Positions 16,533 through 36,188 of a DNA stretch of 64,000 bases are shown in pieces. The position numbers and the translations under genes are program-made. The stretch is taken from contig NZ_CP045430.1 of NCBI RefSeq assembly GCF_005886805.2, positions 310,001 through 374,000 on the forward strand, in the 5' to 3' direction. The stretch is from Pseudoalteromonas rubra (lineage in GTDB: Bacteria > Pseudomonadota > Gammaproteobacteria > Enterobacterales > Alteromonadaceae). The notes under the pieces are model-generated. The model was not told the DNA's origin. It did no database searches and saw nothing but the letters and a program-made list of their open reading frames with translations. The stretch's first letter is position 1. Each line of letters begins with the position of its first letter.

Positions 16533-16805
16533 TTAACTATTCCACTTTCTATTAAACTCTTCTTCTATTTCTTCGATAGTATGTATATATTCACCGGGTT
16601 CCTCCATAGTATCTATTCCGAATAGATATTGCACTCCTTCCCAAAGCTTAGACTCATCCGAAGAAGGTATAAACTCCAATGAGTCATTATCAAATGCCTG
16701 CATCATTTTGTACGCCCATCTATCAGCATCTTCTCTTGAGAGCTCACCAGCTATTAAGTTGTTAAAGATTTGTTTTAACTCAGTATTAGATAATTGAACT
16801 ACCAT
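16533..16805 (-). CDS. Candidate immunity protein for the orphan RHS toxin tip
   Basis: A 90-residue acidic protein, not matched to a named family by eye. It opens MVVQLSNTELKQIFNNL and has SREDADRWAYKMMQAF and a Glu-rich end (EEIEEEF). Its ATG lies inside the end of the toxin frame (7-base overlap), the usual translational coupling for a toxin-immunity pair. Small size, acidity and position immediately after an RHS C-terminal tip support the immunity role, which is inference from established RHS/CDI gene order. Terminator at 16502-16525. Confidence 0.7.
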   Translation of the reverse strand: MVVQLSNTELKQIFNNLIAGELSREDADRWAYKMMQAFDNDSLEFIPSSDESKLWEGVQYLFGIDTMEEPGEYIHTIEEIEEEFNRKWNS

Positions 16806-18245
16806 TTTTTTGTAAAATTCCCATTCTTATCAAACATGAAGTGAGTTTTTGTACCATTGTTAAGTTCTGGTCTCACTTGTCTTACAGTACCGTTATGGTC
16901 GACAGTTTCATGCCATGTTCTCTTAGCCCCAGTTGCAGGATCCCATTCCCTAACGGTTCTGCGCCCTGCCATTTCTCCAGCCTTTTTGGCGGGAATAGTA
17001 TCTCCGTAATACCGAATCTTTCCATTTTGCAGTTCCTTAATTCCCGCCTTGCCATATTTTTCGGCTTGCTTAAGGTGATCTTTTAAGTTTGCAGCCTGTT
17101 TTGCACTCTGGGCTCCAGTGTTTGTAACCTTCTTCTTAGCCTTCCACATCTTATAAGCTTTGGCAGCTGCTGCACCACCAAATGCCAGGCCACCGACCGC
17201 AGCGACCACCACAGCTTTGTAGTCAACACAGGCAAATGGTTCGCCTTCTACATATAGCTGGAATAACAACTCCATACCGCCGTCTTTGGCCGCACCATAC
17301 AGGTTTGCCAGAATGTGCCCGGTCGGGTCAATAAAGTTGACAGGATCTGCTGAAACATAATTATAAAGGTTGGTGTCGCCCCCGCAAAGCCGATTGGATC
17401 TTTTGCAGTCCAACGAGCAGCATACGGATCGTAATCTCGTGCACCAACCTGACCAGCCCGGTGTCGCTGTCATACAAGCCACCCGCAAACCCAAAAGGCT
17501 GAAAACCCGGGTTGGAGTCGTATGTCACCTCGCCATATACATCGTAGTCAAGCCGCTGGGCAATCTCGCCACTCACAGCGTCCACCAGCATCGTGGGTGA
17601 ACCTAGTTGATCGGTAATATAGCGATACTCTCTGCCACCTTTTAGCATGTAGTCAGGAACATGTCCTTTGCTGGCGTAGCCAAACAAAGCAACCACATCA
17701 CCATTGGCGTTTAATTGTGCCACCGGGTTTAACTGGTCACTATACAAGTAACCTGCAACGTGCTGCCCATCTACATATTTAGCCACACGCCGATTTTGCG
17801 GGTCAACATCATAGTCAATTTGTTTGCTAACCTGACCATCTTGCTTAATTTCAACCTGAAGTAGATTGCCAAAAATATCGTAGTCGTAGTTATGCTCTGT
17901 TGAACCACACGTTTTTTGTCTCAGAGCACCGTTAACATCATACTGATACCGGCACTGAGCAAAACTGGTTAGCCTGTCCTGTTCGTCAAATGTTGCGATC
18001 TTAGTTGTGGTTTGCTCGCCTTGTGTGAAATCAATGCCAATCCGGTTACCATTTGCACCATAGCGGTATACCTGTGTGGTGTCTCCTTTTATAGCAGTAC
18101 TCAGGCGACCTAACCCATCGTACAAATAGGTTTCTACTTGGCTTTCACCGGCTAAATGAAACAAGAAGGCGACACCCTCCACAAAATTTCCTTTATCAGA
18201 AATAACAAGTTGGATATCGCCGCGAGTCGTACGCTTGATGCACAA
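16799..18245 (-). pseudogene. Orphan RHS core fragment with alternative C-terminal toxin tip, frameshifted
   Basis: From 18157 down to about 17127 this is nearly identical to 21808-20779 of the giant RHS gene, covering the last YD repeats, the core motif NLYNYVSADPVNFIDPTGH and a hydrophobic linker ending KMWKAKKK. It then diverges into a different tip of about 105 residues, with GDTIPAKKAGEMAGRR, REWDPATG, WHETVDHNG and HFMFDKNGNFTKKW. The tip resembles polymorphic-toxin type 24-like domains (moderate recollection). Compared with the parent, one C is missing in the run at 17379-17383 and one A at about 17446-17447, so the RHS part and the tip lie in different frames. The first 25 or so codons (18245-18160) are unrelated sequence. 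It is either a silent cassette for recombination into the parent, a decayed gene, or affected by sequencing error at homopolymers. Confidence 0.82.
17124..18157 (-). repeat. 1.03-kb direct repeat, orphan copy (partner 20776-21808)
   Basis: The two segments are almost base-for-base identical by eye, with a handful of substitutions and two single-base losses in this copy. Both are on the same strand about 3.65 kb apart, so recombination between them would replace the parent's toxin tip and immunity gene and delete the transposase between them. Confidence 0.9.
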
Positions 18246-20093: not shown

Positions 20094-20453
20094 CTACTCT
20101 TGGAAGATGATCTCCTTTTCAGTATCAAATAAACTTATAGCTTCTGGCTCTCCATCAAAGTAACTTTCCCAGAAGCCTGGCTCAGACCAAAGCTTCGGAG
20201 AAAGTTCTACATGTGACCCGGCAACAAAATTAATTACCCATCTTGCAGGGATTATATCACTCACAATTTCAAACTGATTTGCGTTATGGAAAGCGGGCGT
20301 TCCATTATCACTCATTAATTGAAATTTAACTGCCGCTCCATCTTCCATATTAACAGATAAAACATGATAAACGCTTTCCAACGATAACCATGAGCTTGTT
20401 TCTAGGGGATCTCCCGTACTTTCATCTAAAAGCTTTATACACCGAACTTTCAT
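20094..20453 (-). CDS. Candidate immunity protein for the giant RHS protein's toxin tip
   Basis: A 119-residue acidic protein, MKVRCIKLLDESTGDPLETS at its start, that I cannot assign to a named family. Its ATG lies 2 bases after the RHS stop codon, and the ribosome site GGTGG is within the last RHS codons, so translation is coupled. Position, size and charge fit an immunity gene; this role is inferred. It differs completely from the 90-residue candidate next to the orphan tip, as expected for tip-specific immunity. Confidence 0.72.
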   Translation of the reverse strand: MKVRCIKLLDESTGDPLETSSWLSLESVYHVLSVNMEDGAAVKFQLMSDNGTPAFHNANQFEIVSDIIPARWVINFVAGSHVELSPKLWSEPGFWESYFDGEPEAISLFDTEKEIIFQE

Positions 20454-20455
20454 AC

Positions 20456-23400
20456 TTAACCACCTGATTTAGAGTTAAAAATCACCTTATAATCTTTACT
20501 ATAGAAGACTTCACCAGTCTTAGAGTTTTTATAAAAGTGAGTTTGAAAATTTCCTGAAGGACTTTGAAAAGTCTCAGTACTATATTTACTGAATCCTTTG
20601 GGTATTGCGGGGTTGTTGATCGACGATGCTGGAATTATTTCACGAGAGCCTTTGACTGCCCCGTCAGTTAATTTACCGCTTTTAGTAAACGGCGAATTGG
20701 CTGACTCAAGTGTTAATTGATTCGCAAGCTTAGGTCCATTGGCAATATTGTCCGCTTCCCGAAGTCCACTCTTTGACCCCTTCTTCTTAGCCTTCCACAT
20801 CTTATAAGCTTTGGCAGCTGCTGCACCACCAAATGCCAGGCCACCGACCGCAGCGACCACCACAGCTTTGTAGTCAACACAGGCAAATGGTTTGCCTTCT
20901 ACATATAGCTGGAATAACAACTCCATACCGCCGTCTTTGGCCGCACCATACAGGTTCGCCAGAATGTGCCCGGTCGGGTCAATAAAGTTGACAGGATCTG
21001 CTGAAACATAATTATAAAGGTTGGTGTCGCCCCCCGCAAAGCCGATTGGATCTTTTGCAGTCCAACGAGCAGCATACGGATCGTAATCTCGTGCACCAAA
21101 CCTGACCAGCCCGGTGTCGCTGTCATACAAGCCACCCGCAAACCCAAAAGGCTGAAAACCCGGGTTGGAGTCGTATGTCACCTCGCCATATACATCGTAG
21201 TCAAGCCGCTGGGCAATCTCGCCACTCACAGCGTCCACCAGCATCGTGGGTGAACCTAGTTGATCGGTAATATAGCGATACTCTCTGCCACCTTTTAGCA
21301 TGTAGTCAGGAACATGTCCTTTGCTGGCGTAGCCAAACAAAGCAACCACATCACCATTGGCGTTTAATTGTGCCACCGGGTTTAACTGGTCACTATACAA
21401 GTAACCTGCAACGTGCTGCCCATCTACATATTTAGCCACACGCCGATTTTGCGGGTCAACATCATAGTCAATTTGTTTGCTAACCTGACCATCTTGCTTA
21501 ATTTCAACCTGAAGTAGATTGCCAAAAATATCGTAGTCGTAGTTATGCTCTGTTGAACCACACGTTTTTTGTCTCAGAGCACCGTTAACATCATACTGAT
21601 ACCGGCACTGAGCAAAACTGGTTAGCCTGTCCTGTTCGTCAAATGTTGCGATCTTAGTTGTGGTTTGCTCGCCTTGTGTGAAATCAATGCCAATCCGGTT
21701 ACCATTTGCACCATAGCGGTATACCTGTGTGGTGTCTCCTTTTATAGCAGTACTCAGGCGACCTAACCCATCGTACAAATAAGTTTCTACCTGGCTTTCA
21801 CCGGCTAAAAACTGTTGTTTTCTTGTTATGCGACCCGCATCATCAAATTGATAAGTGGCCTGATACAAGTTTTGTGCGCCAAAGGTATAGTGCTCTTCTT
21901 CGATTTCACCATATTGGTTGTGCGATATGTGATGTTGAATATCAAAGTGCTCAGTCCCGGTAATAACACCGCCTTTATCTAACGCCCTGTTTAAAGTCAG
22001 ATTACCAGCCGATGTGAGCATACCATCCAGATCGTAGCCATAGGCGATACAGCTGGCGTCGTTCACACACACACTGCCAACATCGCCACCCGGGCTATAA
22101 TTGACACTAAATGAGCCAGTTACATCACCAGTCCAATTCGTACCAGTGTAGAGTAAGCCGTCGTAATGATAATTGAGCGTATTGCCATCAGGTGCATTAA
22201 CTCGAATTACATCACCTACTTCGTTGTAGCTCAGTTGGTATCGACCATAAGGGGTACTAATAGACTCTAAACGGTCAATTCCCCTGGCATAGACATAAGA
22301 GATATTTTCTCCTGAGGGGAAAGTAATCTCACTAATTCGCCGGTCTCTGTCATAGACATAGCTGGAGACAGTTTGCTCGGCATCTGCTGCTACCGGTGCA
22401 GTATAACTCGTTACGTTATTAATACTGTTATAAGCAAACTGGTGCTCTGGCTGGCCATCAGGCGTAATAGAAATCAAGTTTCCGTTGTTGTCATACCCAA
22501 ACTCAGTTGCCTGCTGCTGTTGTTCGCTGGACGACAATACGGCTCGGATCACTTGCCCAACATTGTCTCTTGTCAGAGTTACTTGCGGTTGATTACTACC
22601 GACAATTTTTTCTAATAGCCCTGATCGAAGTCCGTAGCCACCACTGTAAAAATACTGGGTGCTCCTGTCACCCTGAGATATTTTCATCAAGCGCCCAAAG
22701 CCATCATAGCTATAGTGGATTGGTGCAAAGCCAACTACTTCGGTATAGTCAGGGATTTGCCTTGCAGTATCTAGTTTTAAAACCGTTTCTCTACCTAACC
22801 TGGTTGTTGTTGTTGATTTACCAGAATTAACGTGATACCTCATTGTTACTTTCTGAGTATCATTGTGCTCCACATTAAAGTAAACGACGTGACCATCGCC
22901 ATTTCTGGTGATGTCGGTTTTGGATTCCACCCCGCCGGGTGATCTCACTACTAGTGATCTTGGGACATTTCTTTTTTGAATGGGGTCGTATTTACTATGG
23001 ACCAGATACTCCATTCCTCCAACTTTCTGATGAGACGTTGGTACCAACCGGTTGTTATAGAATTTAAAAGAGCGCATGCTCGACTCTACAGAGCCGTCCG
23101 GATAGTATGTCTCTGTTCCCCCATTTGCAGATTCTTTTACTTCAAATCGATTATTTTCCGCCGTTGTATATCCATAAATTTTGGCTTGAGTCGCTTCATC
23201 CAGGCGGCTATAAAAGCGCCACTCTCCGTCTTCAGGATCAAGGCTTCGTGTGATCCGCCCATGTGCGTCAAAAAAGCGCTCAAATACATTACCATTTGGG
23301 TCTATCTGATGGTTCAGCAACTCCCCCTGATAGTCGAGTTGATAGCCTGTTCCATCCGGATAGGTAACAGACCTCAGATTGCTGTGTTCATCAATATCCA

Positions 23401-26400
23401 GAGACGTTGTCATCCCTGATGGCGAAACTATCTGAGACACTTTTCCTTGTTCATCACGGATCAAGCGAACCTGATTACCAAAACGATCACGAATACTCGT
23501 CAGCTCCCCGGTGGTTTCTGAGTAGCTAAACGCAGAAAGTAACGTGCCAGTTAGCTTGTCCGTGGTTTTAACATGTTTACCATTCTCTATAATGTAAGGG
23601 CTTACAACACTGTTTTGGTATGGACTAACGCACCGGACGTGGTACTGTTCTTCCTCTTGGCCGTAGGCGTGATAGCCAGTTCCCATTGTAACTTCAATCG
23701 CCCAAGCTTCTAATTCCGGCGCTCCGACATTTGGGGTGGAACTCCAATAGGGCTTTCGCCACTCCACATAGGGGCGCCATATCGCATCGGGATCACCATT
23801 ATGTCCAACCGGAGACTTGAACAAAAAGTTTTTTGTTCCCCCTTGCATCAGTAACTCATTCGCAGTCGGCAAACGCCAGTTGGTCATGCCCGCATGTTCG
23901 AGCGTCTCACAATAATTAATTGCTTCACGCCATGTCATTTTTAGAGAAATGTTGTCCGGTGTGTCCTGCCAATACAGCTGAAAATAATCGTTATAGCCTA
24001 TTAGCCTTAAGGAGTCTGATAACATTGCATAGTTATACGGCGTCATATCATCAGTGATAATTGTCCAGGAGTCGTGATTAAGTCCCCGCCCCGCCACACA
24101 AAGCGCTTGCTTTCTCTGGCCCTCATCAATGGTATTTGCACCCCAAACATTGTTGTAGCTGTTCAGCGTATAGGCGTCCGCTTCATGCTCCCGGCCACTT
24201 TTATCTAGGGTGTAAAGTAGCTCTTTGACTGAGGGCAGTCTCCATCTTCCCGCCCAGGGTCCACCAAAATCCAGGCTCTCACAGTATTCAATCGCTTCGC
24301 TTTTACTAAAAGTCTGCTCTGTCGCTTTGATTTGCCAGTTCAAGCGCGTGTTTATATCGTATAAATAACCATACTTGGTGACGGCATAGGAAATGTCTCT
24401 TCCGGGTGCGCCATAGTAGCCGTCATCACCGTCGACAGCGCTTAAACTTAATCCGGAGCTGACGGTTGGTGAGGCATGACTACCCTTTTCAATTTCACCG
24501 TCCCCACGATAGATGTTTCCATGACTATCCACCAAGTGGTGATTAGATATACTCCAGCCATTGGCAATTTCACTCTTTGGCGATCCAAATAGCGAAATCA
24601 CAGACTCGCTCCATTTGATTATGTTTTGTCGGCCTGTTACACCTAATGATTCATTCCCAAACTGTGCCCAGGTTGGTGGAACCTGATCAGGCCTTAAACC
24701 GGAAGCGGCTATGTTTCCAGCACTGGCATAGGTGGAAGCGTACTCATAGCCAATTTTTAGTCGTGCCTTGACTTCTCCTTTAACAGCGACCCCTCGAACA
24801 TCACGGCCATCCCAGATAAATTCAACATTTTGCATCACACTCGGGGCAAACAACTGCTCAAACCTGTTACCTGCCACTTCAAGCACAGCATGCATGCGTA
24901 TTACACCATCCGGCAGTGACAACCGGCTAACATTTGATTTGATTATATGATGGAAGTCAGAAGTTCTGGCACTATTATAGTGGAGTGTAATACCAGTCCC
25001 CAGAATACTGATATCTTCATGCAACTCCAACGTTTTAGGTTTTATATAAGAACTAACGGCTGCGCATTGATCGTTCTCTTCTACAACAGAACTGTCTCCG
25101 GTTAGGACTTCTACTTCTGTCGGAGGAGTACCACCTGAGCGGGCAGACCAGTTGAAATCATATGGCGTAAAATGGAACATGCGACCGCGCCAGTAGGTTT
25201 TGCCAGCCTCATAGTTCTCAATGCCCTTGCTTTCATCTGCGACAGAGCCATCACCGTCTATATCATCAGGTTGCTCATCACCGGTGTAGTCAACTCCATC
25301 AATTTCTCCATCCCCATTGGTGTCGAGTAGTCTGACAACAACACCATTCTCTGAAGCCTTCCACTTTGCTTCTTGTCGGTCGTAATAGCCAATAGGCACT
25401 AACTCACCAACAGGAAAATCCAGAAAGTTGTCAACATACATCACCACGGGTTGATCGAAATGAACACTTTCATTATCAGCCACCCCGGCGATGTCCAACT
25501 CAGCGCAATAAGTGAAAGCGGACTCCACTGGCAAAGCACCTGGCATGGTTTCTGGTGTTTCATACTCGGTGGCACGGACCGCTATTTTATCCAATGTTCG
25601 TGTTTGCCCGTTAGGACCTACTACCTTAGCTTGATTGACCTCTTCGAAAACAAGTGATGTAGATCGTACACCGAATTCATCAGAGACCGGGTTAGATTTG
25701 TGCACTTTAGGGCCATCTGAAGTTAAATCAACTAAAGTTACTAGCGCATCCAGCGGCTGAAGAGTGACCCTGTCAACGCTATTCCACTCTTTATTGAGCG
25801 CAATAATTTCCCTTTGTACCCTCAAATAGCCGGGCAAAGAGATATCTAATGTCGACTTACCTGCCATACCAGCGATGCTATAACGCCCATTATCGTCCGT
25901 TTTGACGCTACCAAACTCATCCTGACCCAGAAAACTGACTTGTGCATTGGCCAAAGGTTGATCATTGGTATCAAAAACTTCTCCTGTAAATACTGCAAAC
26001 AAGTTGACCGGGAATTGCTCTGCTGATGCATTATCAGCAATCAACTCATGGTGTTCACCTGCAAACCCCTCGGATTCTTTGGTATCTTGTGTCTTTTCAG
26101 ATACAACTATCTGAATAGTATTCGACTCAACCTCGCCCGCAAGAACCGTAAGGCTGGATATACCATTGCTCTTCGCGGTGACAGTACCATTTTTAAAGCT
26201 AAATACACGTCTGTTCAGCTCAACCATACTGACACTTTGATTAACTGGCTCAGAATGTCCACTACTATAAGTTGCCGTTATAGTTAGCTTCTCGGACATG
26301 CCTGGCACCAGATGAAGAGTCTGAGGTGCTACTTCAAGGGCGATCAGTTGCGGAACCGGTTCCAGCGGTACAATGGGCTTGTCACACCGAGTAGCAGCAC

Positions 26401-29400
26401 TATGATCGACACGAGTTATGCTTAACTCCGGCCACGCCTTTGCAACATTAACCAGGTTAACCCCAGTCCAGATTGATTCCACTGACTGTGGCTTATCTCC
26501 ATTTGGGGTGAATGGCCCTGCAATACTGCCGACGCCCAACAATCCCCTCGTTTGTGGCAGTGACCCTGCCGGATAGTCGACAGTTCCAAGCACAGCATTT
26601 CGATGTCCCCATGCCTCTCCTGTATAAGGAAACTTGTCGGCATAGATAAAATCGTACACTGCCAGCATGGCTGCGGCTGAGATTTGCTCGTCCAAAGACA
26701 GATCTGCAGTACTGAAAAAGCGCTTTGACGATAGAGCAAGAACTTCCCTAACTCCCCAGTACTTACTGTGTTCTTCCCAACCTGGAAAGTGCTCAATAAC
26801 ACGTTGATGTGGAGTAGCACCATCTGAAGTTCTGTAGTGACTAAACAAGTCATTTTCTAGCGAATACTGTGCGAACTTTTGCGTTATTTCGCTAAACTCT
26901 GCGGTAACACCGTAAAAAGCCTCAATACCGCGTGCAGTCCGCTCAGCATTAATCAGGTAAAGTACTTTTTCTGCAGCTGACCACGCATCCCACACGCTTT
27001 GTGCTGGCATGTGTAGTTCTGCTTCAACTGTTTTATCCTGCCGTCGTGCATTGTTAAAACTAACCTCAATATCCTCAACCCGATGATAAGTCGCACCGAT
27101 CCAATCAATGTTTTCCTCTGGCACTGATTGTTCAAGCTTTTCGTCGGAAAGTAGCCTGTTAGGTTTACAGCTTTCAATTGTTGCCCTTACCCTTAGCGTT
27201 GTTCGATATGTGTAACTTTGCTCTTTTTCGTCAACGACTTTCAGCTCAAGGGTATAATCGCCATAATCCTCTGAAAACAAAAATGAGTGCTCGGTTCCAA
27301 CCTCGATACCATCTAACAGCCATTGATACTGCTTGAAAATCGCACCGTCATGATCCGGATGAACTGATAGCTTTTTACTTTCAAAGCGATCCACGGTTAT
27401 AACATCCGGAAATGGTTTTACAAGTATGATTGTGATCAACCCGGTTGCTGATTTACCATCAAAGCGAGTTGCTTTTAGTTGATAAGTTTCTTTTTCAACT
27501 ATGTTATTCAGATGTAGCTCGTTAACAGCCCAAACACGTCCATCGCTTAAGCGAGTGATTTCGAACCTGTGATACTTTGGATCGATTCCTTGATCAGAAA
27601 ACGAAAGTGTATAATTATCATGTTTATGAACAGCTACAACACGATTTTCCGGCAATGGAATGTTCTCTGGTAGCACAGTAATTTTTACCTGGTAGACTTT
27701 ACTCTGCCCCTTAGCATCAACTATTTTCAGTTCAAGGGAATAATCACCGGAATCCTTTGAAAACAGGAATGAGGGCTCAGTTCCTACCTCGATACCATCT
27801 AACAACCACTGATATTGTTCAAAAATTGCATCATCATATTCTGGATGCACTGTTAGCTTTTTCGTCTCAAAACGGTTCAAAGTTATAACATCAGGAAATG
27901 CTCTTGCAGGTACGATAGTGATCAGCCCGGTAGCAGATATACCATCAAAGTGAGTTGCTTTTAGCTGATAGGTCTCTTTTTCAACTATATTGTTTATATG
28001 TAGCTCATTAACAGCCCAAATATGCCCATCACTTAAGCGAGTGATTTCGCACCTATGGTACTTTGGATCGACTCCTTCATCAGAAAACGAAAGTGTATAG
28101 CTGTCATGTTTATGAACAGCTACAACTCGATTTTCCGGCAATGGATTATCTTTTGGTTGCACAGTAATTTGTACCGGGTAGACCTTGCTATATCCCAGTT
28201 CTCCCGTAATGTGTAGCTGGCCTTCATATTGTCCAGCAGGATAATCGAACTTGTATCTGCTGTTATAAAGGGGTACTGGCTTGCCATCAACAACCCAGTT
28301 ATTCCTGTAATTTTTAAACCGCTCTAACTTAGGAAGAAAGTTTGCCTCTCCTTCAGTAAATATCAGATTCGATAACCCAATATCAGTGGGCCAATCGGTG
28401 ACTGTTACTGTTGAGACATATTCATCCGGATTCCCCAGAGAATCTTTCAGTACAATTTTTACTTTGTAGGTACCAGGTGGCTTAGCGAAGTTCATAAATG
28501 GCGAATAAGCATTAACTCCTCTCCATGGTTCCTCATTAATGTACCACTCAAGTTGCTCAAATACGGGCTTGCCATACTGGTTCGTCGACTTATGAGCAAA
28601 GAATCGATAGTGTTCACCTGGCAATAAACTTAGGCTTGAGGGCAAAGGCCTGGCAACGACAACCTGAATACTGCTCGTTGCCAAATTACCCTGTGGATCT
28701 GTTATATTAAGTTGAAACGTATCGTCGGCGGTAACATCTGTGAGCATCAGGCTTGGCGTGTCGTATACTTTTCCTGTTGCTACACTCGAAAACTCGAATT
28801 TAAGATCATCTCCATAGTCAGCGCCTTGTGCCAGTAAAACAGGCTGCAACAGATAGTCTGACCCGCTTAACAACCCAATGTCGGGCCCCAAATTGGCTAG
28901 CTCATTTAATGTAAGATGACGTAATTCCAGCTTTATGGTGGCTATACGAGAGTAATTCTGCCCATCATAAACACGCACTTTAAATTCATCAGCAACATCT
29001 CGGTCCAAGTCTAATGCTCGGTATTTAAATGTCGTAGGTAGCCAGTCACCGGACTCAAAAGGTATAAACTGATTCCCCGTTGCACTTTGCTTACCCAGCT
29101 CAACCAATTTAGGCATTTCAACCACCTCAACTCGCAACCTCTGGCGAGCTTGACAATAAACAGTTGGCTCAGGGCACGTGGGAGATATCAAGTCGGGATC
29201 TTCAACATCTAATGCAATTGAGTGACCAAGTACATCTTGCGCGCTAATCCTTTTAATAATGTGCAAATCCTCCACAGTCGGAGGGGTATTTGTGGGATCA
29301 GCAATGACAGTAACAGGTAGTTGCAAATCGTACTTGAACCCAAACTTTCGCAGAGTCACAAGGAGCGACCATTCACCCAGATCTGGGATCAGGTTATGCT

Positions 29401-32400
29401 CACTGCTAATATTTGTTGAGCAATCTAGGTGCCCTGACTTGCAAGTCAGACGCCAACTTATCTCAGGTTGAAAACCATAAATTTCACTTTCAGACGCATC
29501 TATGTGCAGCAGCTCACCAAACCTGATCACAGAGTTGTAATCTACCTTAAGTTTAGGCCTCTGCCAGTCTCTGACGCATCGCACTAACCCCTGACGCTGC
29601 GGGATATCTGCGCTTCTTAACCCAACGGGCAAATAAGTAACATGTATAAAGCTATGACCATCTTTTTTTATGAGATAAGCATTGTTATTGTGATCTGTTT
29701 TTGTGGAGCTCCAGAATGAATAATCAGACCATTTGTTGAACAATTCAGAAAATTGAACTGCATAGATGCTTTGATCATGTGCAAGACTATATAGTTCATT
29801 GATATTTGGAAGGCGCCAATCATCAAATCCAGCCTCTTGCAAATTTTCACAGTATTGAACAGCCTGATGCCATCCTGATGACAACACAACGGAGTCAGAG
29901 CTTCTCGCTTTTTTCTGCCAAACTAACAGATTGCTCTGATCGTAAACGCCATACTCATATTGCTTATAACTTGGCTGATGTGCTACTTCACCAGTCACAC
30001 ATAGTGCATTGCCTTTTGCATACTTTACATTGTTGCGTGAATAAGCAAGCCCTGTACTAAGATCGATTTGAGTTGCAGATTGAATCGTAGAGTCATCACC
30101 CAAAAGCAAGGTATCCAGCTCGGCAGACCAATACTTTGAAGACCCCCTGGAGTTAAATTCTGCTGGTAACAGCCCGCTATTAAAATCACTTCTATCAAGA
30201 AGGAAAAACAACTCTTCCTCCAACGGTAAGCGCCAAGAGTCAATGCCTGCATGGTTTAGGTTTTCACAATAACTCACCGCCGAGTGCCAAGACAGTCCTT
30301 GAGCCCTATGTTCAGTAGCAAGGTCAGCCCAAATCAGCATTGAATTTTGGTCGGAGATGAGGCCGTCCTGCAACTCTACGTAAGACCGTTCGCGCCCTTG
30401 TTGATAAAACCCGTCGTCAAATGGCGCAAGACTTTGTGCTTGGCCAGTTTTTGGTATGTTGTTTTTGCTTGTTAGCTTGTTGTTATTTAAATCTTCAATT
30501 GAGCAACCAAATCTATCTAACCCTTCGACAGAATTCGTTTCAAGGCACAAATCAGCCACATCAGGTATGCCGTCCTCATCCTGATCATTGCCCTTCTCAA
30601 CCTCAATAGTGAAAGCTTGTTGTACCGTTTCAATACCATCATAAGCAACTAACACGACAGACTGCGTCCCCATATCTTCAGCCTGCGGTATCCAGCGTAT
30701 TTTATTGAACCGGTCAAGTATCATACCTGAAGGGGCTGAGGCCAGATATAGCTGCATATAACCGTCAGTATCGGAAGCGACGGCCTGATACTGGTATTCA
30801 TACCCAACAACCGCAGACAAAGCCGGGTTGCTATGAATGATGGGAGGTCTGTTGTCATCAGATACACCCAACAGATACCGCTGTATTAACGTGGTGCCTG
30901 CCTGTGAAGTAGCTGCAACTTCAATCTGATGGCTTCCCCAATTACCGGGTACATTCCAGCTTATTAAACCAGATTGACTGACAACCATCCCTTCAGGCCC
31001 TTTGAGTAATTCGTAACTAACTTGGTCATTGAGCGAGTGTTGCAGCTGATAGTGGTATAACGTTCCGCTTATCGCCGTTACTTTTGGGATGCTGGTAAAT
31101 TTTGGTATTGGGCTCCCAGGCTGCAGCACCTTTATTAGGCGACTTGATGAATGAGTTTGTCCATTATTATCGACCACTGAAAGCGTAATAACATGTTCCC
31201 CAGCGGGAAGCTCAGAGACTTCGTAGACCGCCTGCTTTGAAACAAGCAACCCGTTAATTCGCCATTGATACTCTTTAAGTTCCTGACCATTTGAGCTGAA
31301 ACTATCCAACCCATATAAAGTAAACGCTTGGCCAGCTAAGATTGTTGCAAACTTACCTAATACTGCTTTGGGGAAGACTGAAGTAACGTTTCTGCTATTC
31401 AGCCAACCCAACTTACCATCAAACCAAATACCAAATTGAGAGTCGAGAGCTTTAGTTACAACCCAAGAAGACCCTCGTGAAGCATAGCCCAACGGAACCT
31501 CATTAAATTCACTTTCTTTATGTATAACTTCGACATTGCGCGCTCCTGTAGAGGTGCAGTGATCAGAGTCCATGCGCTGTACCTGGGCAAGTTCAACCCA
31601 CTTAGTCGAATCGTCAAAGTGAATTTCGACACGTTCTTGTGTCATGCTGACTATTACGTATTGCTGACCAGCAGAGATGTACTGCCTCACTGAAGAACTA
31701 GCTGCAGAATCAAAAACACCAGTTCTCCCCACCGTTTCAATGATGCTACATTGCTGAGCTTTCTCCTCTAACGAGAGTTCAATCGATTGTAAATCAAAAT
31801 GAATACCATCCAACACCCTAATCTCAACTTCAACCAAGGACTTACTTGCAACATCAGGCAACCAACTAATGGCGCCACTCTCCTCATCGATCTGCATTCC
31901 TTCAGGAGACCTTAGCAATGCGAATTTTTGTTGAGTGCTTACCCTGGTTAGAATTGGGGTGTAGACAAACAGCTGGTCTCTTGTGGCCTTCAATACGACA
32001 TGTTTGTCGACGAACTTCGGGGCATTATTCACCCCCAGCGCTTGGACAAAGCTTGCCTGCACCCAAGCATAACTTTTACGATCATAAGCGTCGTGATACT
32101 CCACCTTATACCAGCCATCTTGATGGTCAACGACGAAATACTTGGAGCCAATATAGAGCGAGCTCAAAAATGGATAAGAGGAAAGGTCTGGATTTTCATA
32201 CCCACTTCCACCTTCGCTAATGACGGTCAAACAAGCCGTACCAAAAGATTCCCCTAAACTGCTTTGAGGAACCCATCCTGCCAAATCTTCAATAACAATT
32301 TTAGAGAAACCATTTTCTTGCTCATCTAGCAGGAATCGCTGCCCTACTTTAGCAATACCAATTGTACGACTACCTTGAACTGCATTGGCTTTTATGTAGG

Positions 32401-35080
32401 TATCGCTCTTCACTGTTACAGCACTACATTGAGTGATAAATGGCTCTGGTGCAACATCTATGGCAAATACCTGAGGGGCCTCTTTTCCGTTCCTGGTTAC
32501 AACCACTGTTACTGAATGCTGGCCGATTTGATTGATACCTGGATACCACTCAATTAGACCCGCAGCGGAAATAGACATCCCTGCTGGTGAATCTTTCAGA
32601 ATGTAGGTAATGCTGGAGTCCAGAGAAGCTAACTCAATTTGATAACGATATACTTGATTAGCAGTAGCAGTTTCAATGGGCAAACTCGTTATCACTGGCA
32701 CATCATGCTGAGGATCTCTAGAGGCTTTTTTAATGTAACCGACCTGACCGGCATACCAGACTTTTACCCACCCTGAATTTTCTGTCGATATGCTCCATTG
32801 AGAGCCATAAGGCACCGATCCCAATTGTGGTGCTTTTTCACTGGCAAATTGGTAAACAATATTCCCTGAATTTTGGTCAACATGTGAACACGCGCCATCT
32901 ACAAACTCTAGATATCCCGGTCCGTAAGCCCACTTAGCTTCCCCATCAAACCATATTTGATACCAGGCACCTTTTTGGTCTAGATACGCATATCTTTGAC
33001 CACTTTGTATGTACCCTACTTTATTGCCACTGGTGCTATTCAAATCGCGTACATTGACGCCTCTGATACTTTCAACTAGCTTGCAAGACACACCTGATAA
33101 CCCAGCTACCTCAACAGAAAACTTTTGTATTGCCGTTAAGTTACCAGTAGTAACAGCCATGATTTCTACATTATGCTGGCCTATTTGTGCAGAGCTAGGC
33201 TCCCAAATCAGCCTATTTTCGCTGATATACATACCAACTGGCGCAGAAAGAATTTCATACGTGACAGGCAAAGACCAATTACTGGAAATTTGATAGTTAA
33301 ACTCTTGGCTGACACCTACAGCTGAAGGAGGTTCGGAGGTAAACGCTAGATTATCATTAGTTGTATCGGTATCGTCGGAAACAAATAACTTTACTAATTC
33401 CCCTCCGAACCAAGTAACAACCGTGTTCACACCTTTTTGTAAAACAACCCATTTAGAGTCTTTTTGAGCAACACCAATATTATTGTTCTCAGCAAGAGTT
33501 TGAGCTTCCATTGATTGCTCAGCAGTGATGCAATATGCATTACTACGCTTAAGATAACCAGCTCCATATGCCCAACGAGCGGCTCCATCATACCAAATAT
33601 TAACCCAATTCCCCTGCTCAGACAGAACTGTATATTGTTCACCTACTGTGATGTAACCTACTTTTTGCGAGGATCCGTTTGCTTCAGTGCGCACATTAAC
33701 ATTTCTAACGGCTTCAACTATCTCACATTGCTTTTCATCATATAGCTCAGAAACTTCAATTGAGAATGACTGAATTAATTCACTTCCCACTAAATCTAGC
33801 GCTCGTAGAGTCACAAAGTGCTCACCAGAGTCTGATTCAGATGGCAGCCATGTGATCACTCCACCCTCTAGCGACATGCCATCAGGAGCCTCATCGAGGT
33901 TGAACCGTATACCTTTATGATGACCTTTGAGCTGGGGTACGTAGTAATAAGTGGTTTGAGGCGCTGTACGTATGTTCGGAGTGGAAATGAATGACCAATC
34001 TGCTTCCAGAGGAATGACTGAAGCTTTTGCTTTCGCAATATAGCCGGACTGCCCTAAATACCATACTTGGTACCAATCGTTTGTTTCCTGAGTAACAACC
34101 CATTTCGAGTTAGGTTCAACCCTTCCAAGCTGTGAAGAGTTTGAATCAGGTGCCATATAAACAGCACTAAAATCAGTGGTATTTAAACAACGACCATCAG
34201 AAGTATTCAAATACCCTTTACTATAAGACCAACGCGGCTGCCCATCATGCCAGATATTGAGCCAATTCCCCTCGCTTCCAATTATAGGGTACTGTTCACC
34301 AACATTTATATAACTAACTTTATCGTCTGATGAACTATTTCCGCTACGAACATTAACCCCTTTTATACTCTCGGCAATAGAACAATTTGCGGCTTGTGAA
34401 TCGTGAACAATTAAATTGATATTCTGAACCGAAACAACGCCAGTTAATAACTCTAATGCCAGTTCAATTTCGTGGTTTCCAACATTCCCACTTGCTGGTA
34501 CCCACTGAAGCTTACCCTGCTCATAGCGCATTCCATCAGGCCCACTTTTTAGTGTAACGCCTATCGCTGATTCTGGTTTCTGGAAATAATAGTTGAAAGT
34601 GGTTCCAACAAACGCATGTTGACTGGGAATATGCATCTCCGTCTTGGTCCCCTGGGACAATGCACTTGTTGCAACCCAACCTTTTTTTCCGCCAAACCAG
34701 ATATCCAACCACTCAGAATTGTGATTATTCACCACCCAGATTGAACCTGCAGGAGCATTCCCTAATACGTTTGCTGGCGAATTTTGCTCAACAACTTGGG
34801 TACTCTCTTGCAGAGAAATGCAAGTACCTGACGATTCCTTTAAATATCCGGGAGCGAAAGACCACCTTGCGGATCCGTCAAACCAAAAGTTAACCCAACT
34901 ACCATCTTTTTTTATTATGGGATATTTTTCTCCGGGGCTAAGGTAGCCAACTTTTGAACTGTCGGAACTGCTGGCACTTCTGACATTGACACCTTTCACC
35001 CCTTCAATGACCTGACAGTTTGCCGAAACCACTGAACTAGAAAGCAACATAATAAACGATAAGATGTGCCAAGCAGACAT
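20456..35080 (-). CDS. Giant secreted RHS/YD-repeat protein (4874 aa) with SH3, Ig-like, DUF1566, CAP modules and C-terminal toxin tip
   Basis: Signal peptide at residues 1-20. Six modules start at about residues 21, 232, 451, 665, 883 and 1110. The first four carry GVNVR-type bacterial SH3 pairs and Ig/He_PIG-like domains (GPDGM, LQWVPASGNVGNHEI); five and six are more diverged. Then PKD/He_PIG domains (1240-1490), a thrombospondin type 3-like DEDGIPDVADLC (about 1497), two DUF1566-like domains (1568-1834), cadherin/Ig-like repeats including a 162-residue tandem duplication (about 2312-2630), a CAP/SCP domain (about 2697-2887), Big_2-like and carboxypeptidase-regulatory-like domains (2907-3100), two more DUF1566-like domains (3564-3824), YD repeats (about 3844-4627) and the RHS core end KDPIGFAGGDTNLYNYV (about 4677). 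The last 100 or so residues, after KMWKAKKK, are the variable tip (GSREIIPASSINNPAIPKGF, TGEVFYSKDYKVIF). RHS cores encapsulate and release toxic tips. Sec export and surface display are inferred; no PAAR or VgrG is nearby. Confidence 0.9.
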   Translation of the reverse strand: MSAWHILSFIMLLSSSVVSANCQVIEGVKGVNVRSASSSDSSKVGYLSPGEKYPIIKKDGSWVNFWFDGSARWSFAPGYLKESSGTCISLQESTQVVEQNSPANVLGNAPAGSIWVVNNHNSEWLDIWFGGKKGWVATSALSQGTKTEMHIPSQHAFVGTTFNYYFQKPESAIGVTLKSGPDGMRYEQGKLQWVPASGNVGNHEIELALELLTGVVSVQNINLIVHDSQAANCSIAESIKGVNVRSGNSSSDDKVSYINVGEQYPIIGSEGNWLNIWHDGQPRWSYSKGYLNTSDGRCLNTTDFSAVYMAPDSNSSQLGRVEPNSKWVVTQETNDWYQVWYLGQSGYIAKAKASVIPLEADWSFISTPNIRTAPQTTYYYVPQLKGHHKGIRFNLDEAPDGMSLEGGVITWLPSESDSGEHFVTLRALDLVGSELIQSFSIEVSELYDEKQCEIVEAVRNVNVRTEANGSSQKVGYITVGEQYTVLSEQGNWVNIWYDGAARWAYGAGYLKRSNAYCITAEQSMEAQTLAENNNIGVAQKDSKWVVLQKGVNTVVTWFGGELVKLFVSDDTDTTNDNLAFTSEPPSAVGVSQEFNYQISSNWSLPVTYEILSAPVGMYISENRLIWEPSSAQIGQHNVEIMAVTTGNLTAIQKFSVEVAGLSGVSCKLVESIRGVNVRDLNSTSGNKVGYIQSGQRYAYLDQKGAWYQIWFDGEAKWAYGPGYLEFVDGACSHVDQNSGNIVYQFASEKAPQLGSVPYGSQWSISTENSGWVKVWYAGQVGYIKKASRDPQHDVPVITSLPIETATANQVYRYQIELASLDSSITYILKDSPAGMSISAAGLIEWYPGINQIGQHSVTVVVTRNGKEAPQVFAIDVAPEPFITQCSAVTVKSDTYIKANAVQGSRTIGIAKVGQRFLLDEQENGFSKIVIEDLAGWVPQSSLGESFGTACLTVISEGGSGYENPDLSSYPFLSSLYIGSKYFVVDHQDGWYKVEYHDAYDRKSYAWVQASFVQALGVNNAPKFVDKHVVLKATRDQLFVYTPILTRVSTQQKFALLRSPEGMQIDEESGAISWLPDVASKSLVEVEIRVLDGIHFDLQSIELSLEEKAQQCSIIETVGRTGVFDSAASSSVRQYISAGQQYVIVSMTQERVEIHFDDSTKWVELAQVQRMDSDHCTSTGARNVEVIHKESEFNEVPLGYASRGSSWVVTKALDSQFGIWFDGKLGWLNSRNVTSVFPKAVLGKFATILAGQAFTLYGLDSFSSNGQELKEYQWRINGLLVSKQAVYEVSELPAGEHVITLSVVDNNGQTHSSSRLIKVLQPGSPIPKFTSIPKVTAISGTLYHYQLQHSLNDQVSYELLKGPEGMVVSQSGLISWNVPGNWGSHQIEVAATSQAGTTLIQRYLLGVSDDNRPPIIHSNPALSAVVGYEYQYQAVASDTDGYMQLYLASAPSGMILDRFNKIRWIPQAEDMGTQSVVLVAYDGIETVQQAFTIEVEKGNDQDEDGIPDVADLCLETNSVEGLDRFGCSIEDLNNNKLTSKNNIPKTGQAQSLAPFDDGFYQQGRERSYVELQDGLISDQNSMLIWADLATEHRAQGLSWHSAVSYCENLNHAGIDSWRLPLEEELFFLLDRSDFNSGLLPAEFNSRGSSKYWSAELDTLLLGDDSTIQSATQIDLSTGLAYSRNNVKYAKGNALCVTGEVAHQPSYKQYEYGVYDQSNLLVWQKKARSSDSVVLSSGWHQAVQYCENLQEAGFDDWRLPNINELYSLAHDQSIYAVQFSELFNKWSDYSFWSSTKTDHNNNAYLIKKDGHSFIHVTYLPVGLRSADIPQRQGLVRCVRDWQRPKLKVDYNSVIRFGELLHIDASESEIYGFQPEISWRLTCKSGHLDCSTNISSEHNLIPDLGEWSLLVTLRKFGFKYDLQLPVTVIADPTNTPPTVEDLHIIKRISAQDVLGHSIALDVEDPDLISPTCPEPTVYCQARQRLRVEVVEMPKLVELGKQSATGNQFIPFESGDWLPTTFKYRALDLDRDVADEFKVRVYDGQNYSRIATIKLELRHLTLNELANLGPDIGLLSGSDYLLQPVLLAQGADYGDDLKFEFSSVATGKVYDTPSLMLTDVTADDTFQLNITDPQGNLATSSIQVVVARPLPSSLSLLPGEHYRFFAHKSTNQYGKPVFEQLEWYINEEPWRGVNAYSPFMNFAKPPGTYKVKIVLKDSLGNPDEYVSTVTVTDWPTDIGLSNLIFTEGEANFLPKLERFKNYRNNWVVDGKPVPLYNSRYKFDYPAGQYEGQLHITGELGYSKVYPVQITVQPKDNPLPENRVVAVHKHDSYTLSFSDEGVDPKYHRCEITRLSDGHIWAVNELHINNIVEKETYQLKATHFDGISATGLITIVPARAFPDVITLNRFETKKLTVHPEYDDAIFEQYQWLLDGIEVGTEPSFLFSKDSGDYSLELKIVDAKGQSKVYQVKITVLPENIPLPENRVVAVHKHDNYTLSFSDQGIDPKYHRFEITRLSDGRVWAVNELHLNNIVEKETYQLKATRFDGKSATGLITIILVKPFPDVITVDRFESKKLSVHPDHDGAIFKQYQWLLDGIEVGTEHSFLFSEDYGDYTLELKVVDEKEQSYTYRTTLRVRATIESCKPNRLLSDEKLEQSVPEENIDWIGATYHRVEDIEVSFNNARRQDKTVEAELHMPAQSVWDAWSAAEKVLYLINAERTARGIEAFYGVTAEFSEITQKFAQYSLENDLFSHYRTSDGATPHQRVIEHFPGWEEHSKYWGVREVLALSSKRFFSTADLSLDEQISAAAMLAVYDFIYADKFPYTGEAWGHRNAVLGTVDYPAGSLPQTRGLLGVGSIAGPFTPNGDKPQSVESIWTGVNLVNVAKAWPELSITRVDHSAATRCDKPIVPLEPVPQLIALEVAPQTLHLVPGMSEKLTITATYSSGHSEPVNQSVSMVELNRRVFSFKNGTVTAKSNGISSLTVLAGEVESNTIQIVVSEKTQDTKESEGFAGEHHELIADNASAEQFPVNLFAVFTGEVFDTNDQPLANAQVSFLGQDEFGSVKTDDNGRYSIAGMAGKSTLDISLPGYLRVQREIIALNKEWNSVDRVTLQPLDALVTLVDLTSDGPKVHKSNPVSDEFGVRSTSLVFEEVNQAKVVGPNGQTRTLDKIAVRATEYETPETMPGALPVESAFTYCAELDIAGVADNESVHFDQPVVMYVDNFLDFPVGELVPIGYYDRQEAKWKASENGVVVRLLDTNGDGEIDGVDYTGDEQPDDIDGDGSVADESKGIENYEAGKTYWRGRMFHFTPYDFNWSARSGGTPPTEVEVLTGDSSVVEENDQCAAVSSYIKPKTLELHEDISILGTGITLHYNSARTSDFHHIIKSNVSRLSLPDGVIRMHAVLEVAGNRFEQLFAPSVMQNVEFIWDGRDVRGVAVKGEVKARLKIGYEYASTYASAGNIAASGLRPDQVPPTWAQFGNESLGVTGRQNIIKWSESVISLFGSPKSEIANGWSISNHHLVDSHGNIYRGDGEIEKGSHASPTVSSGLSLSAVDGDDGYYGAPGRDISYAVTKYGYLYDINTRLNWQIKATEQTFSKSEAIEYCESLDFGGPWAGRWRLPSVKELLYTLDKSGREHEADAYTLNSYNNVWGANTIDEGQRKQALCVAGRGLNHDSWTIITDDMTPYNYAMLSDSLRLIGYNDYFQLYWQDTPDNISLKMTWREAINYCETLEHAGMTNWRLPTANELLMQGGTKNFLFKSPVGHNGDPDAIWRPYVEWRKPYWSSTPNVGAPELEAWAIEVTMGTGYHAYGQEEEQYHVRCVSPYQNSVVSPYIIENGKHVKTTDKLTGTLLSAFSYSETTGELTSIRDRFGNQVRLIRDEQGKVSQIVSPSGMTTSLDIDEHSNLRSVTYPDGTGYQLDYQGELLNHQIDPNGNVFERFFDAHGRITRSLDPEDGEWRFYSRLDEATQAKIYGYTTAENNRFEVKESANGGTETYYPDGSVESSMRSFKFYNNRLVPTSHQKVGGMEYLVHSKYDPIQKRNVPRSLVVRSPGGVESKTDITRNGDGHVVYFNVEHNDTQKVTMRYHVNSGKSTTTTRLGRETVLKLDTARQIPDYTEVVGFAPIHYSYDGFGRLMKISQGDRSTQYFYSGGYGLRSGLLEKIVGSNQPQVTLTRDNVGQVIRAVLSSSEQQQQATEFGYDNNGNLISITPDGQPEHQFAYNSINNVTSYTAPVAADAEQTVSSYVYDRDRRISEITFPSGENISYVYARGIDRLESISTPYGRYQLSYNEVGDVIRVNAPDGNTLNYHYDGLLYTGTNWTGDVTGSFSVNYSPGGDVGSVCVNDASCIAYGYDLDGMLTSAGNLTLNRALDKGGVITGTEHFDIQHHISHNQYGEIEEEHYTFGAQNLYQATYQFDDAGRITRKQQFLAGESQVETYLYDGLGRLSTAIKGDTTQVYRYGANGNRIGIDFTQGEQTTTKIATFDEQDRLTSFAQCRYQYDVNGALRQKTCGSTEHNYDYDIFGNLLQVEIKQDGQVSKQIDYDVDPQNRRVAKYVDGQHVAGYLYSDQLNPVAQLNANGDVVALFGYASKGHVPDYMLKGGREYRYITDQLGSPTMLVDAVSGEIAQRLDYDVYGEVTYDSNPGFQPFGFAGGLYDSDTGLVRFGARDYDPYAARWTAKDPIGFAGGDTNLYNYVSADPVNFIDPTGHILANLYGAAKDGGMELLFQLYVEGKPFACVDYKAVVVAAVGGLAFGGAAAAKAYKMWKAKKKGSKSGLREADNIANGPKLANQLTLESANSPFTKSGKLTDGAVKGSREIIPASSINNPAIPKGFSKYSTETFQSPSGNFQTHFYKNSKTGEVFYSKDYKVIFNSKSGG
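20776..21808 (-). repeat. 1.03-kb direct repeat, parental copy (partner 17124-18157)
   Basis: It is the 3' part of the giant gene, from AGESQVETYLYDG through the RHS core and the hydrophobic linker. The intact C and A runs here (six C near 21030, three A near 21098) show where the orphan lost bases. Confidence 0.9.
27190..28160 (-). repeat. Tandem 486-bp (162-residue) duplication inside the giant RHS gene
   Basis: The segment with PENRVVAVHKHD, DPKYH, EITRLSDG, NNIVEKETYQLKAT and FEQYQWLLDGIEVGTE occurs twice in a row with period 486 bases (for example CAGCTACAAC at 27631 and 28117). The copies differ by scattered substitutions, so the duplication is not brand new. Each unit looks like an Ig-like pair in the stalk. 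Confidence 0.85.
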
Positions 35081-35495: not shown

Positions 35496-36188
35496 ATGAA
35501 AATGAAAATGAAGTTATCCGGAAAGATCCTCCCTCTAATTGCGCTAACCACTCTTGCAGGCTGTATGAGCACTGGTCCACATTTAAAGAGCTCTGTCTCT
35601 GAGGGTGTAGCTGGTATAGAAGCGCGTCTGCCTTACGCCAATTACAGTAACTACTTCGGTTACGTTGATAAGTCGGTTGTACCGGAAGGCAAGTACAAAG
35701 GTAAAGATACCTACTACCTGTACGTCTGGGTCCCTGCGGCAGTCGATGAAATTGGTGTTTCTATGATTTCACCTGCGGTTGCTACACCAGGTGACAGCGA
35801 CTTTGTTCACGCAAACTTTAAACCAGGTATGGCGAAGGATGCCAATAAGTTCTTCGACACTTATATCGTACTGGATCGCATGAACATCATAGATAGCAAC
35901 AGCATCTCTGATGGTGGTAAAGTGTTACAAAACCTGGGCCGTAATGACGACAGCAGTGAGCTACCAGCTAACCCAAGTGGCGCAAGCTACAATTCTTTGC
36001 TGCGTAAAACAACCTCTATGAATAACCCAACTGAAGCACTGGTCCGTGGTGTCTATCGTATCGGATTTACCTCGTTCCGCTCTTCTGTTGAAGGCTCGTT
36101 TGAAGCAACAATCGGTACGAATGTTCCGGGCGTAAAGATTGCCGCTTCTCTGTCCGAGCTGGATGCACTGGTAAACAAAAAGCTGTAA
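35496..36188 (+). CDS. LipL32-like surface lipoprotein
   Basis: A 230-residue lipoprotein: signal peptide with lipobox LAGC (Cys near residue 23). The mature part follows leptospiral LipL32: RLPYANYSNYFGYVDKS, KDTYYLYVWVPAAVDEIGVSMISP, ATPGDSDFVHANF, FFDTYIVLDRMNII and LVRGVYRIGFTSFR-x-VEGSFEATIG. LipL32 is the major outer-membrane lipoprotein of pathogenic Leptospira, has a jelly-roll fold, and binds calcium and host matrix proteins. Homologues in marine Pseudoalteromonas have been noted. Function here is unknown; an outer-membrane location is inferred. ATG 35496 starts MKMKMKLSG; later in-frame ATGs at 35502 and 35508 are alternatives. A terminator follows. Confidence 0.88.
   Translation: MKMKMKLSGKILPLIALTTLAGCMSTGPHLKSSVSEGVAGIEARLPYANYSNYFGYVDKSVVPEGKYKGKDTYYLYVWVPAAVDEIGVSMISPAVATPGDSDFVHANFKPGMAKDANKFFDTYIVLDRMNIIDSNSISDGGKVLQNLGRNDDSSELPANPSGASYNSLLRKTTSMNNPTEALVRGVYRIGFTSFRSSVEGSFEATIGTNVPGVKIAASLSELDALVNKKL

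What the first reader, a model, noticed from the sequence alone, without database searches (positions are those of the whole stretch)
20456..35080. 4874-residue Sec-exported RHS toxin-carrier with an unusually long mosaic stalk
Seen: one uninterrupted 14.6-kb gene with signal peptide, six SH3/Ig modules (the last two diverged), a thrombospondin-3-like motif, four DUF1566-like domains, tandem Ig-like repeats, a CAP domain, a carboxypeptidase-regulatory-like domain, YD repeats and the RHS core, ending in a short variable tip followed by an immunity candidate. Known: RHS cores encapsulate C-terminal toxins, and WapA-like proteins are Sec-exported in Gram-positives; Gram-negative RHS proteins are mostly T6SS effectors with PAAR. 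Inference: a Sec-dependent, surface-displayed contact weapon or adhesin. The CAP and DUF1566 domains would be unusual recognition or processing parts.
Basis: partly seen in the sequence, partly recalled or inferred. Interest (0 to 1): 0.75.

Follow-up and report, generated by a model that had tools for sequence, protein, structure and literature searches.

The report
Teneurin-like toxin carrier with lectin-like domains
A marine bacterium carries a giant exported protein built like the bacterial relatives of the animal brain receptor teneurin, with a swappable, probably toxic end and a matching antidote-type gene, but with two lectin-like domains where teneurin has its recognition propeller.

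Summary
In detail: one intact 4,874-residue gene (20456-35080, minus) of a Pseudoalteromonas near P. rubra. Residues 3029-3542 and 3831 onward align with the solved bacterial teneurin-like protein 9IFO (TTR, TIP, FN-plug, YD-shell). The NHL propeller of the published definition is missing; two Lcl_C (DUF1566, lectin-like) domains fill its slot. Of 121 proteins examined, 42 have Lcl in the slot and a matching CAP domain; 79 have no Lcl. The Lcl proteins are one side of a branch, support 100. The 103-residue tip also sits on unrelated carriers, and a gene of the downstream immunity family adjoins it at 4 of 4 other loci read. Tips are polymorphic (37 clusters in 41; shell 1). A displaced second tip lies downstream, and neutral divergence falls beside the tip. 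No T6SS sheath gene was found. Toxicity, protection, outer-membrane route and target are not shown. A new variant of a known kind: it should work like a teneurin-like toxin carrier, but fails that family's NHL criterion.

The parts
20456..35080 (-). 4,874-aa teneurin-like toxin carrier gene
   Evidence: family
35021..35080 (-). putative Sec signal peptide (aa 1-20)
   Evidence: sequence by eye; no lipobox by regex; no predictor was run
31091..35017 (-). six SH3-SH3-Ig modules (aa 22-1330), last two diverged
29561..30340 (-). Lcl_C pair A (aa 1581-1840)
27161..29533 (-). PKD/Ig-like repeat region (aa 1850-2640, limits approximate)
26510..26974 (-). CAP-like domain (aa 2703-2857), conserved H/E/D/GHR positions
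25763..26002 (-). TTR domain (aa 3027-3106)
25067..25762 (-). TIP-equivalent region (aa 3107-3338)
   Evidence: alignment to 9IFO; the name TIP from PMC13018210
24455..25066 (-). FN-plug (aa 3339-3542) with C3339 and S3344 aligned to BiTLP C719 and S724
   Evidence: PMC13018210
23615..24355 (-). Lcl_C pair B (aa 3576-3822) in the slot where teneurin-like proteins have the NHL propeller
20969..23590 (-). YD-shell and RHS core (aa 3831-4704)
20969..21091 (-). autoprotease motif R4664-x12-DPxG-x20-DPTG (aa 4664-4704)
   Evidence: same spacing as BiTLP R2103/D2116/D2140
20768..20968 (-). pretoxin region (aa 4705-4771) with C4734 and a hydrophobic stretch
20459..20767 (-). variable tip, presumed toxin (aa 4772-4874)
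20094..20453 (-). presumed cognate immunity gene, 119 aa
17114..18156 (-). displaced copy of the 3' core (aa 4424-4772), 99% identical, reading frame broken
16799..17113 (-). displaced second tip, different from the active one
16533..16805 (-). candidate immunity gene of the second tip, 90 aa
   Evidence: by position only, no family hit of note

Best explanation
An exported, polymorphic antibacterial toxin carrier of teneurin-like build. Shown by sequence: N-terminal SH3/Ig stalk, Lcl pair, CAP, then TTR-TIP-FN-plug, a second Lcl pair in place of the NHL propeller, YD-shell with the RHS autoprotease motif, and a variable tip followed by a gene whose family accompanies that tip on other carriers and in another phylum. 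Inferred: the protein passes the inner membrane by Sec and the outer membrane by another route (T2SS is a candidate). The shell closes around the 170-residue C-terminal part and cuts it off after DPTG; the plug is cut at S3344, and C3339-C4734 may tether the toxin to the plug, as C719-C2216 do in the solved BiTLP. The Lcl and CAP domains bind a glycan or envelope target on the neighbouring cell. The tip then acts inside the target and siblings survive through the 119-aa immunity protein. New tips arise by recombination in the 3' core.
Against: The tip has no Pfam, NCBIfam or PDB-fold match (PHROGs not searched) and its own model is poor (pLDDT 53), so no activity is predicted. The signal peptide is atypical (no positive charge) and was judged by eye. 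No outer-membrane route is shown. The strict autoprotease spacing is found in 21 of 42 Lcl proteins and 57 of 79 others, so it is not universal; some of these proteins are truncated. The pair C3339-C4734 is a positional inference, and in other members the C-terminal cysteine lies elsewhere or was not found. Gram-negative teneurin-like proteins are predicted to be lipoproteins in the paper, unlike this one. A low-divergence bin also occurs far from the tip (aa 2251-2500, 2 of 35 sites). The neighbourhoods of P0121 and P0122 could not be read.
Confidence: 0.72

Rival explanations
1. An adhesin or anti-eukaryote (grazer, fungus, alga) protein: Lcl and CAP bind eukaryotic glycans or membranes and the toxin acts on a predator or host.
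For: Legionella Lcl binds sulphated glycosaminoglycans and its C-terminal domain resembles C-type-lectin-like domains (PMC11162425, passages). CAP domains are common in eukaryotes (recalled). One tip carrier (P0121) is of SpvB type, a part also found in Tc toxins (recalled).
Against: A linked gene of one immunity family that follows the tip across carriers fits bacterial targets; some sister C-termini are wall-enzyme or interbacterial effector families (Tlde1, TseH).
Confidence: 0.18
2. A T6SS-delivered Rhs effector.
Against: No VipB/TssC found in the genome while the same search rang in the E. coli control; no PAAR in the protein; hydrophobic leader instead.
Confidence: 0.02
3. A surface or matrix protein kept for adhesion or biofilm, with the tip and downstream gene incidental.
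For: The carrier up to aa 4771 is under purifying selection (dN/dS 0.16) and is rich in Ig, SH3 and Lcl modules.
Against: Tip replacement, tip-immunity cassettes on unrelated carriers and displaced cassettes are hallmarks of polymorphic toxins (PMC3482391, passages).
Confidence: 0.06
4. The missing NHL is only apparent: a propeller too diverged for profiles lies in aa 3543-3830.
For: Not excluded by the fold search, which aligned whole chains.
Against: The segment holds two Pfam Lcl_C stretches, is 288 residues against 327 for BiTLP NHL, and the NHL profile finds 0 of 42.
Confidence: 0.02

Closest known systems
Bacterial teneurin-like proteins, BiTLP 9IFO/9PT5 (Raoelijaona et al. 2026, PMC13018210; abstract, Results parts 1 and 2 of 3, Discussion, HMM method section and passages read)
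   Same: TTR, TIP, FN-plug, YD-shell, R/DPxG/DPxG autoprotease spacing, plug Cys and Ser at aligned positions, polymorphic C-terminus, downstream immunity gene
   Different: NHL propeller replaced by two Lcl_C domains; CAP domain and another Lcl pair upstream; non-lipoprotein leader; SH3/Ig stalk; displaced tip cassettes. The paper calls the superfold organisation invariant and required NHL in its search; 'DUF1566', 'Lcl', 'CAP domain' and 'Pseudoalteromonas' occur 0 times in its main text; its supplements were not readable here
Metazoan teneurins (6FB3 and others)
   Same: TTR, FN-plug and YD-shell
   Different: NHL present; ABD and Tox-GHH outside the shell (PMC13018210, and PMC6425310 passages)
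Legionella collagen-like protein Lcl (PMC11162425, passages)
   Same: Lcl_C/DUF1566 domain
   Different: collagen-like trimer with one such domain per chain, adhesin
T6SS Rhs effectors (RhsA, Tse15, RhsP) and Tc BC complexes
   Same: YD/RHS shell (fold hits); autoproteolytic C-terminus (recalled, and PMC13018210)
   Different: no PAAR or T6SS sheath found here; no TTR and FN-plug base there (recalled; PMC6425310 passages for Tc)
CDI/CdiA and orphan Rhs tips (Salmonella orphan rhs, PMC3967940, abstract read)
   Same: 82% identical tip on a CdiA-like protein (P0122); displaced tip with its own immunity candidate
   Different: carrier and export route

Membership tests
Bacterial teneurin-like protein as defined in PMC13018210 | FN-plug | tested here: met
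   PF24329 (E 4.5e-6 in the slice, 27.3 bits against a 27.8 cut-off) and the 9IFO alignment
Bacterial teneurin-like protein as defined in PMC13018210 | NHL propeller between FN-plug and YD-shell | tested here: not met
   Lcl_C pair there; NHL profile 0 of 42 with 38 of 38 held-out positives
Bacterial teneurin-like protein as defined in PMC13018210 | YD-shell with RHS autoprotease motif | tested here: met
Bacterial teneurin-like protein as defined in PMC13018210 | TTR and TIP upstream | tested here: met
   aa 3029-3338 align to BiTLP from 401 up to the plug
Polymorphic toxin system | constant carrier with exchangeable C-terminal tips | tested here: met
   37 tip clusters of 41 against 1 shell cluster; carrier 87% and tip 27% identical to G482
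Polymorphic toxin system | adjacent cognate immunity gene | tested here: met
   immunity profile at 4 of 4 other tip loci whose DNA was at hand; protection itself untested
Polymorphic toxin system | toxic activity of the tip | not testable with these tools
   no family or fold match
T6SS Rhs effector | PAAR domain in the protein, T6SS in the genome | tested here: not met
CAP superfamily | PF00188 profile match | tested here: inconclusive
   query none, 5 of 7 family segments yes; His, Glu, Asp and GHR columns invariant in 7; no PDB sequence hit with the profile
Lcl_C (PF07603) | profile match above cut-off | tested here: met
   4 stretches, E 4.9e-57
WapA-type Gram-positive RHS toxin | Sec leader, wall-binding part, RHS core and toxin tip | not tested
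   general plan similar, recalled; not compared by sequence

The most novel reading that the evidence does not exclude
The position between FN-plug and YD-shell is an exchangeable recognition socket. In one group of gammaproteobacterial toxins the propeller that serves recognition in animal teneurins was replaced, once, by a pair of C-type-lectin-like domains, after the lineage had gained a CAP domain. These proteins would be glycan-guided, T6SS-independent toxin carriers, a second structural class beside the NHL teneurin-like proteins.
Probability: 0.35. Interest if true: 0.85.

Novelty: new variant of a known kind. Interest (0 to 1): 0.66.

Why it matters
Bacterial teneurin-like proteins were defined in print as having an invariant FN-plug/NHL/YD superfold. 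A well-supported group without NHL, which a search that requires NHL would miss, means the class is larger than described. It gives a natural experiment on what the propeller does: the slot that serves cell-cell recognition in animal teneurins holds lectin-like domains here. It also suggests that teneurin-like carriers exchange tips by recombination, with displaced cassettes, and adds a toxin-immunity family without a Pfam entry that is shared by Rhs, SpvB-type, CdiA-like and Streptomyces carriers.

Tried and rejected
T6SS origin: rejected. Tip in phages, plasmids or viral contigs: no hit. Tip identity by Pfam, NCBIfam and fold: nothing; a helix-helix-three-strand outline at pLDDT 53 tempted a BECR-type RNase reading, which I do not claim. 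PADLOC: nothing for gene and immunity. CAP profile against PDB sequences: no hit at E 1. Lcl pair B alone against PDB sequences: one chance-level match, E 0.63. The BLASTP self-comparison returned nothing and was replaced. VIA-align listed no C-type-lectin-like chain for the Lcl part of the model, which tests that part barely.

Limits of the counts. The 121-protein comparison uses the best 120 of 238 hits plus the query, so it leans to relatives of the query. P0001 is a 99% near-copy of the query that stops at 4,500 aa and is counted in the 42. In one search 31 of the 42 have two Lcl matches in the slot and 11 have one. The CAP profile was built from 29 of the 42 proteins it then finds; the Lcl profile came from the query alone. 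Three of the 79 non-Lcl proteins (P0054, P0066, P0079) do carry a Pfam CAP domain (two checked) that the clade profile does not reach at 1e-3, so CAP as such is not confined to the Lcl group. Two of the 79 had no plug hit. The NHL count's Pfam column (77 of 79 against 0 of 41) was read by eye. The tree dropped P0001, P0106 and P0115 (118 of 121 used), is a quick search with 29 weak forks, and is rooted at the midpoint for drawing, so 'CAP first, then NHL lost' is inference. The 41 C-termini include at least two truncated proteins (P0035, called partial by its source, and P0040, which ends in the core); for short C-termini the last 110 residues include core. The bins compared were chosen after one search had shown lower dS at the 3' end, so its p-value is descriptive.

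Full report
Setting. The window lies at C2:310001-374000 of a two-contig genome of 5.94 Mb, completeness 100. The closest named relative of the protein is from Pseudoalteromonas rubra (P0002). The gene runs 20456-35080 on the minus strand, 4,874 codons with no internal stop. Against the orthologue in genome G482 the carrier is 87% identical over 4,608 aligned codons with dN/dS 0.16, while the tips align at 27% over 81 codons. The gene is thus a maintained carrier with a replaced tip.

Anatomy. Six modules of two SH3-like parts and one Ig-like part start at aa 22, 233, 452, 666, 885 and 1111. The first four are alike (28-37%), the last two diverged (14-24%); module 5 with 3 only equals the best of 50 shuffles and 5 with 6 stays below it. 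Then come a weak TSP3-like motif, an Lcl_C pair (aa 1581-1840), PKD/Ig repeats, a CAP-like domain (2703-2857), an Ig-like stretch, TTR (3027-3106), FN-plug, a second Lcl_C pair (3576-3822), YD-shell and RHS core, and the tip.

The propeller slot. In 121 proteins (query plus the best 120 of 238 homologues) 42 have one or two Lcl_C matches between plug and YD-shell and also a match to the clade's CAP profile. The other 79 have neither match; 77 of those have a plug hit, with a 413-495-residue gap to the YD start. Three of the 79 carry a Pfam CAP domain all the same. An NHL profile trained on half of the 77 gaps finds 38 of 38 held-out proteins and 0 of 42 Lcl proteins. In a tree of the shared domains (118 proteins) the Lcl group is one side of a branch with SH-aLRT 100. 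By midpoint root its neighbours are seven NHL proteins, among them those three with Pfam CAP. In the two of them that I scanned, CAP lies upstream of TTR, as here, and NHL is present. The simplest reading is that CAP came first and NHL was replaced once; this depends on the root. The Lcl group includes Shewanella, Aliikangiella, Pleionea, Leucothrix, Marinobacter, Rheinheimera and Gilvimarinus proteins by source names. In genomes, the CAP-to-plug stretch is found in 5 of 108 genomes of the genus, own included. In 369 gammaproteobacterial genomes 24 match at all, but only 3, own included, across the whole query, and 2 in the CAP part alone.

Tip and immunity. The 103-residue tip is 82-84% identical to the ends of an SpvB/FG-GAP carrier (P0121) and a CdiA-like protein (P0122) (the names of the Pfam numbers PF03534 and PF13332 are recalled). 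A Streptomyces Rhs with a HINT-like pretoxin region has it at 48% (L031; HINT judged by eye). In sampled Pseudomonadota it occurs in 3 of 398 genomes, own included. A profile of 21 immunity homologues, the window's own among them, hits the gene directly after the tip at 4 of 4 other tip loci whose DNA was at hand (L031 1e-22, L032 9e-19, L045 6e-36, L046 6e-5), among 750 translated segments. In L032 the tip itself is broken. The neighbourhoods of P0121 and P0122 could not be read. The same profile also hits the gene after the G519 copy, which has another tip (3e-9). Clustering of the last 110 residues gives 37 clusters among 41 Lcl proteins; a 110-residue stretch of the shell gives one. Of 10 of these C-termini, chosen by me, 5 match Tox-REase-7, Tlde1, Ntox24, TseH or, below its cut-off, YkuD; 5 match nothing.

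Tip exchange. Window 17114-18156 is a 99% copy of the core end (aa 4424-4772) with a broken frame. It is followed by a different tip and a 90-aa candidate immunity gene. Two transposase-like ORFs lie between it and the active pair. Displaced core pieces also follow the gene in L043 (96% and 89%) and L044 (three, about 70%), but none was found in the 7,473 bases held downstream in L041 or the 533 held in L042. Fourfold-site divergence from G482 is 387 of 1275 over aa 1-3500 and 26 of 228 over aa 4250-4771 (Fisher p 3e-10, bins chosen). One other bin is also low (aa 2251-2500, 2 of 35). A frame piece from G519 falls in the same direction, less steeply (0.15-0.18 in the last three bins against 0.22-0.39 before). 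This is what recombination in the 3' core would leave. Recombination of a main rhs gene with an orphan tip has been reported in Salmonella (PMC3967940, abstract).

Export. No T6SS sheath gene was found and one unrelated PAAR gene; the T2SS gene gspM is present, other T2SS genes were not searched. The leader looks Sec-type but was judged by eye; a lipobox regex matched 3 of 42 Lcl-group leaders, not this one. Legionella Lcl is discussed in its paper among T2SS substrates (passages), which makes T2SS a candidate only.

Novelty. Library searches showed no paper describing Lcl or CAP domains in teneurin-like or Rhs proteins, judged by titles and starts of abstracts of the rows listed: 12 of 22; 2 of 2; 10 of 77; 7 of 7; 8 of 19; 10 of 30; 10 of 157; 10 of 101. 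The teneurin-like protein paper has none of these words in its main text. Supplements could not be read, and most subscription papers are not in the library. Because NHL is part of the published definition, I do not file this as a teneurin-like protein in that sense. It is a sister variant that, by anatomy, should work like one.

Limits. Toxicity, protection, display, outer-membrane passage and target are untested. The tip has no fold or family. The disulfide tether, plug cleavage and glycan binding are inferred from relatives.

Noticed in passing
window 35496-36188 (+): LipL32-family surface lipoprotein gene (Pfam PF12103, 1.4e-71), divergent from the carrier gene; a near-identical neighbour is present in G482 (L042 17188-17874).
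   Followed up: no
window 18395-19366 and 19446-19877 (-): Two transposase-like ORFs (weak Y1_Tnp; RAYT type by recall), the second truncated, 88% identical at DNA level over 300 bases, between the immunity gene and the displaced tip.
   Followed up: partly
G000 C2:680-707 kb, C2:1333 kb, C1:70-92 kb, C1:884 kb, C1:2481 kb, C1:3332 kb: Further RHS open frames in the same genome, including four of about 2,400 aa close together on C2.
   Followed up: no
L041 5445-7464: In G519 three small genes, the first an immunity-family member, follow the carrier, whose copy there is split over two frames.
   Followed up: partly
G572 C7:59001-59588 and G702 C111:8426-9010: 438-aa open frames matching only the CAP part of the query, perhaps stand-alone relatives of this CAP.
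   Followed up: no
L032 302-1059: Streptomyces sp. JHD 1 carries a broken copy of the tip next to an immunity gene without stops.
   Followed up: no
C-termini of P0006, P0012, P0016, P0027, P0031 and others: Several Lcl-group proteins end with a cysteine in the last few residues, and many carry a cysteine near the plug cleavage site, as for a tether.
   Followed up: partly
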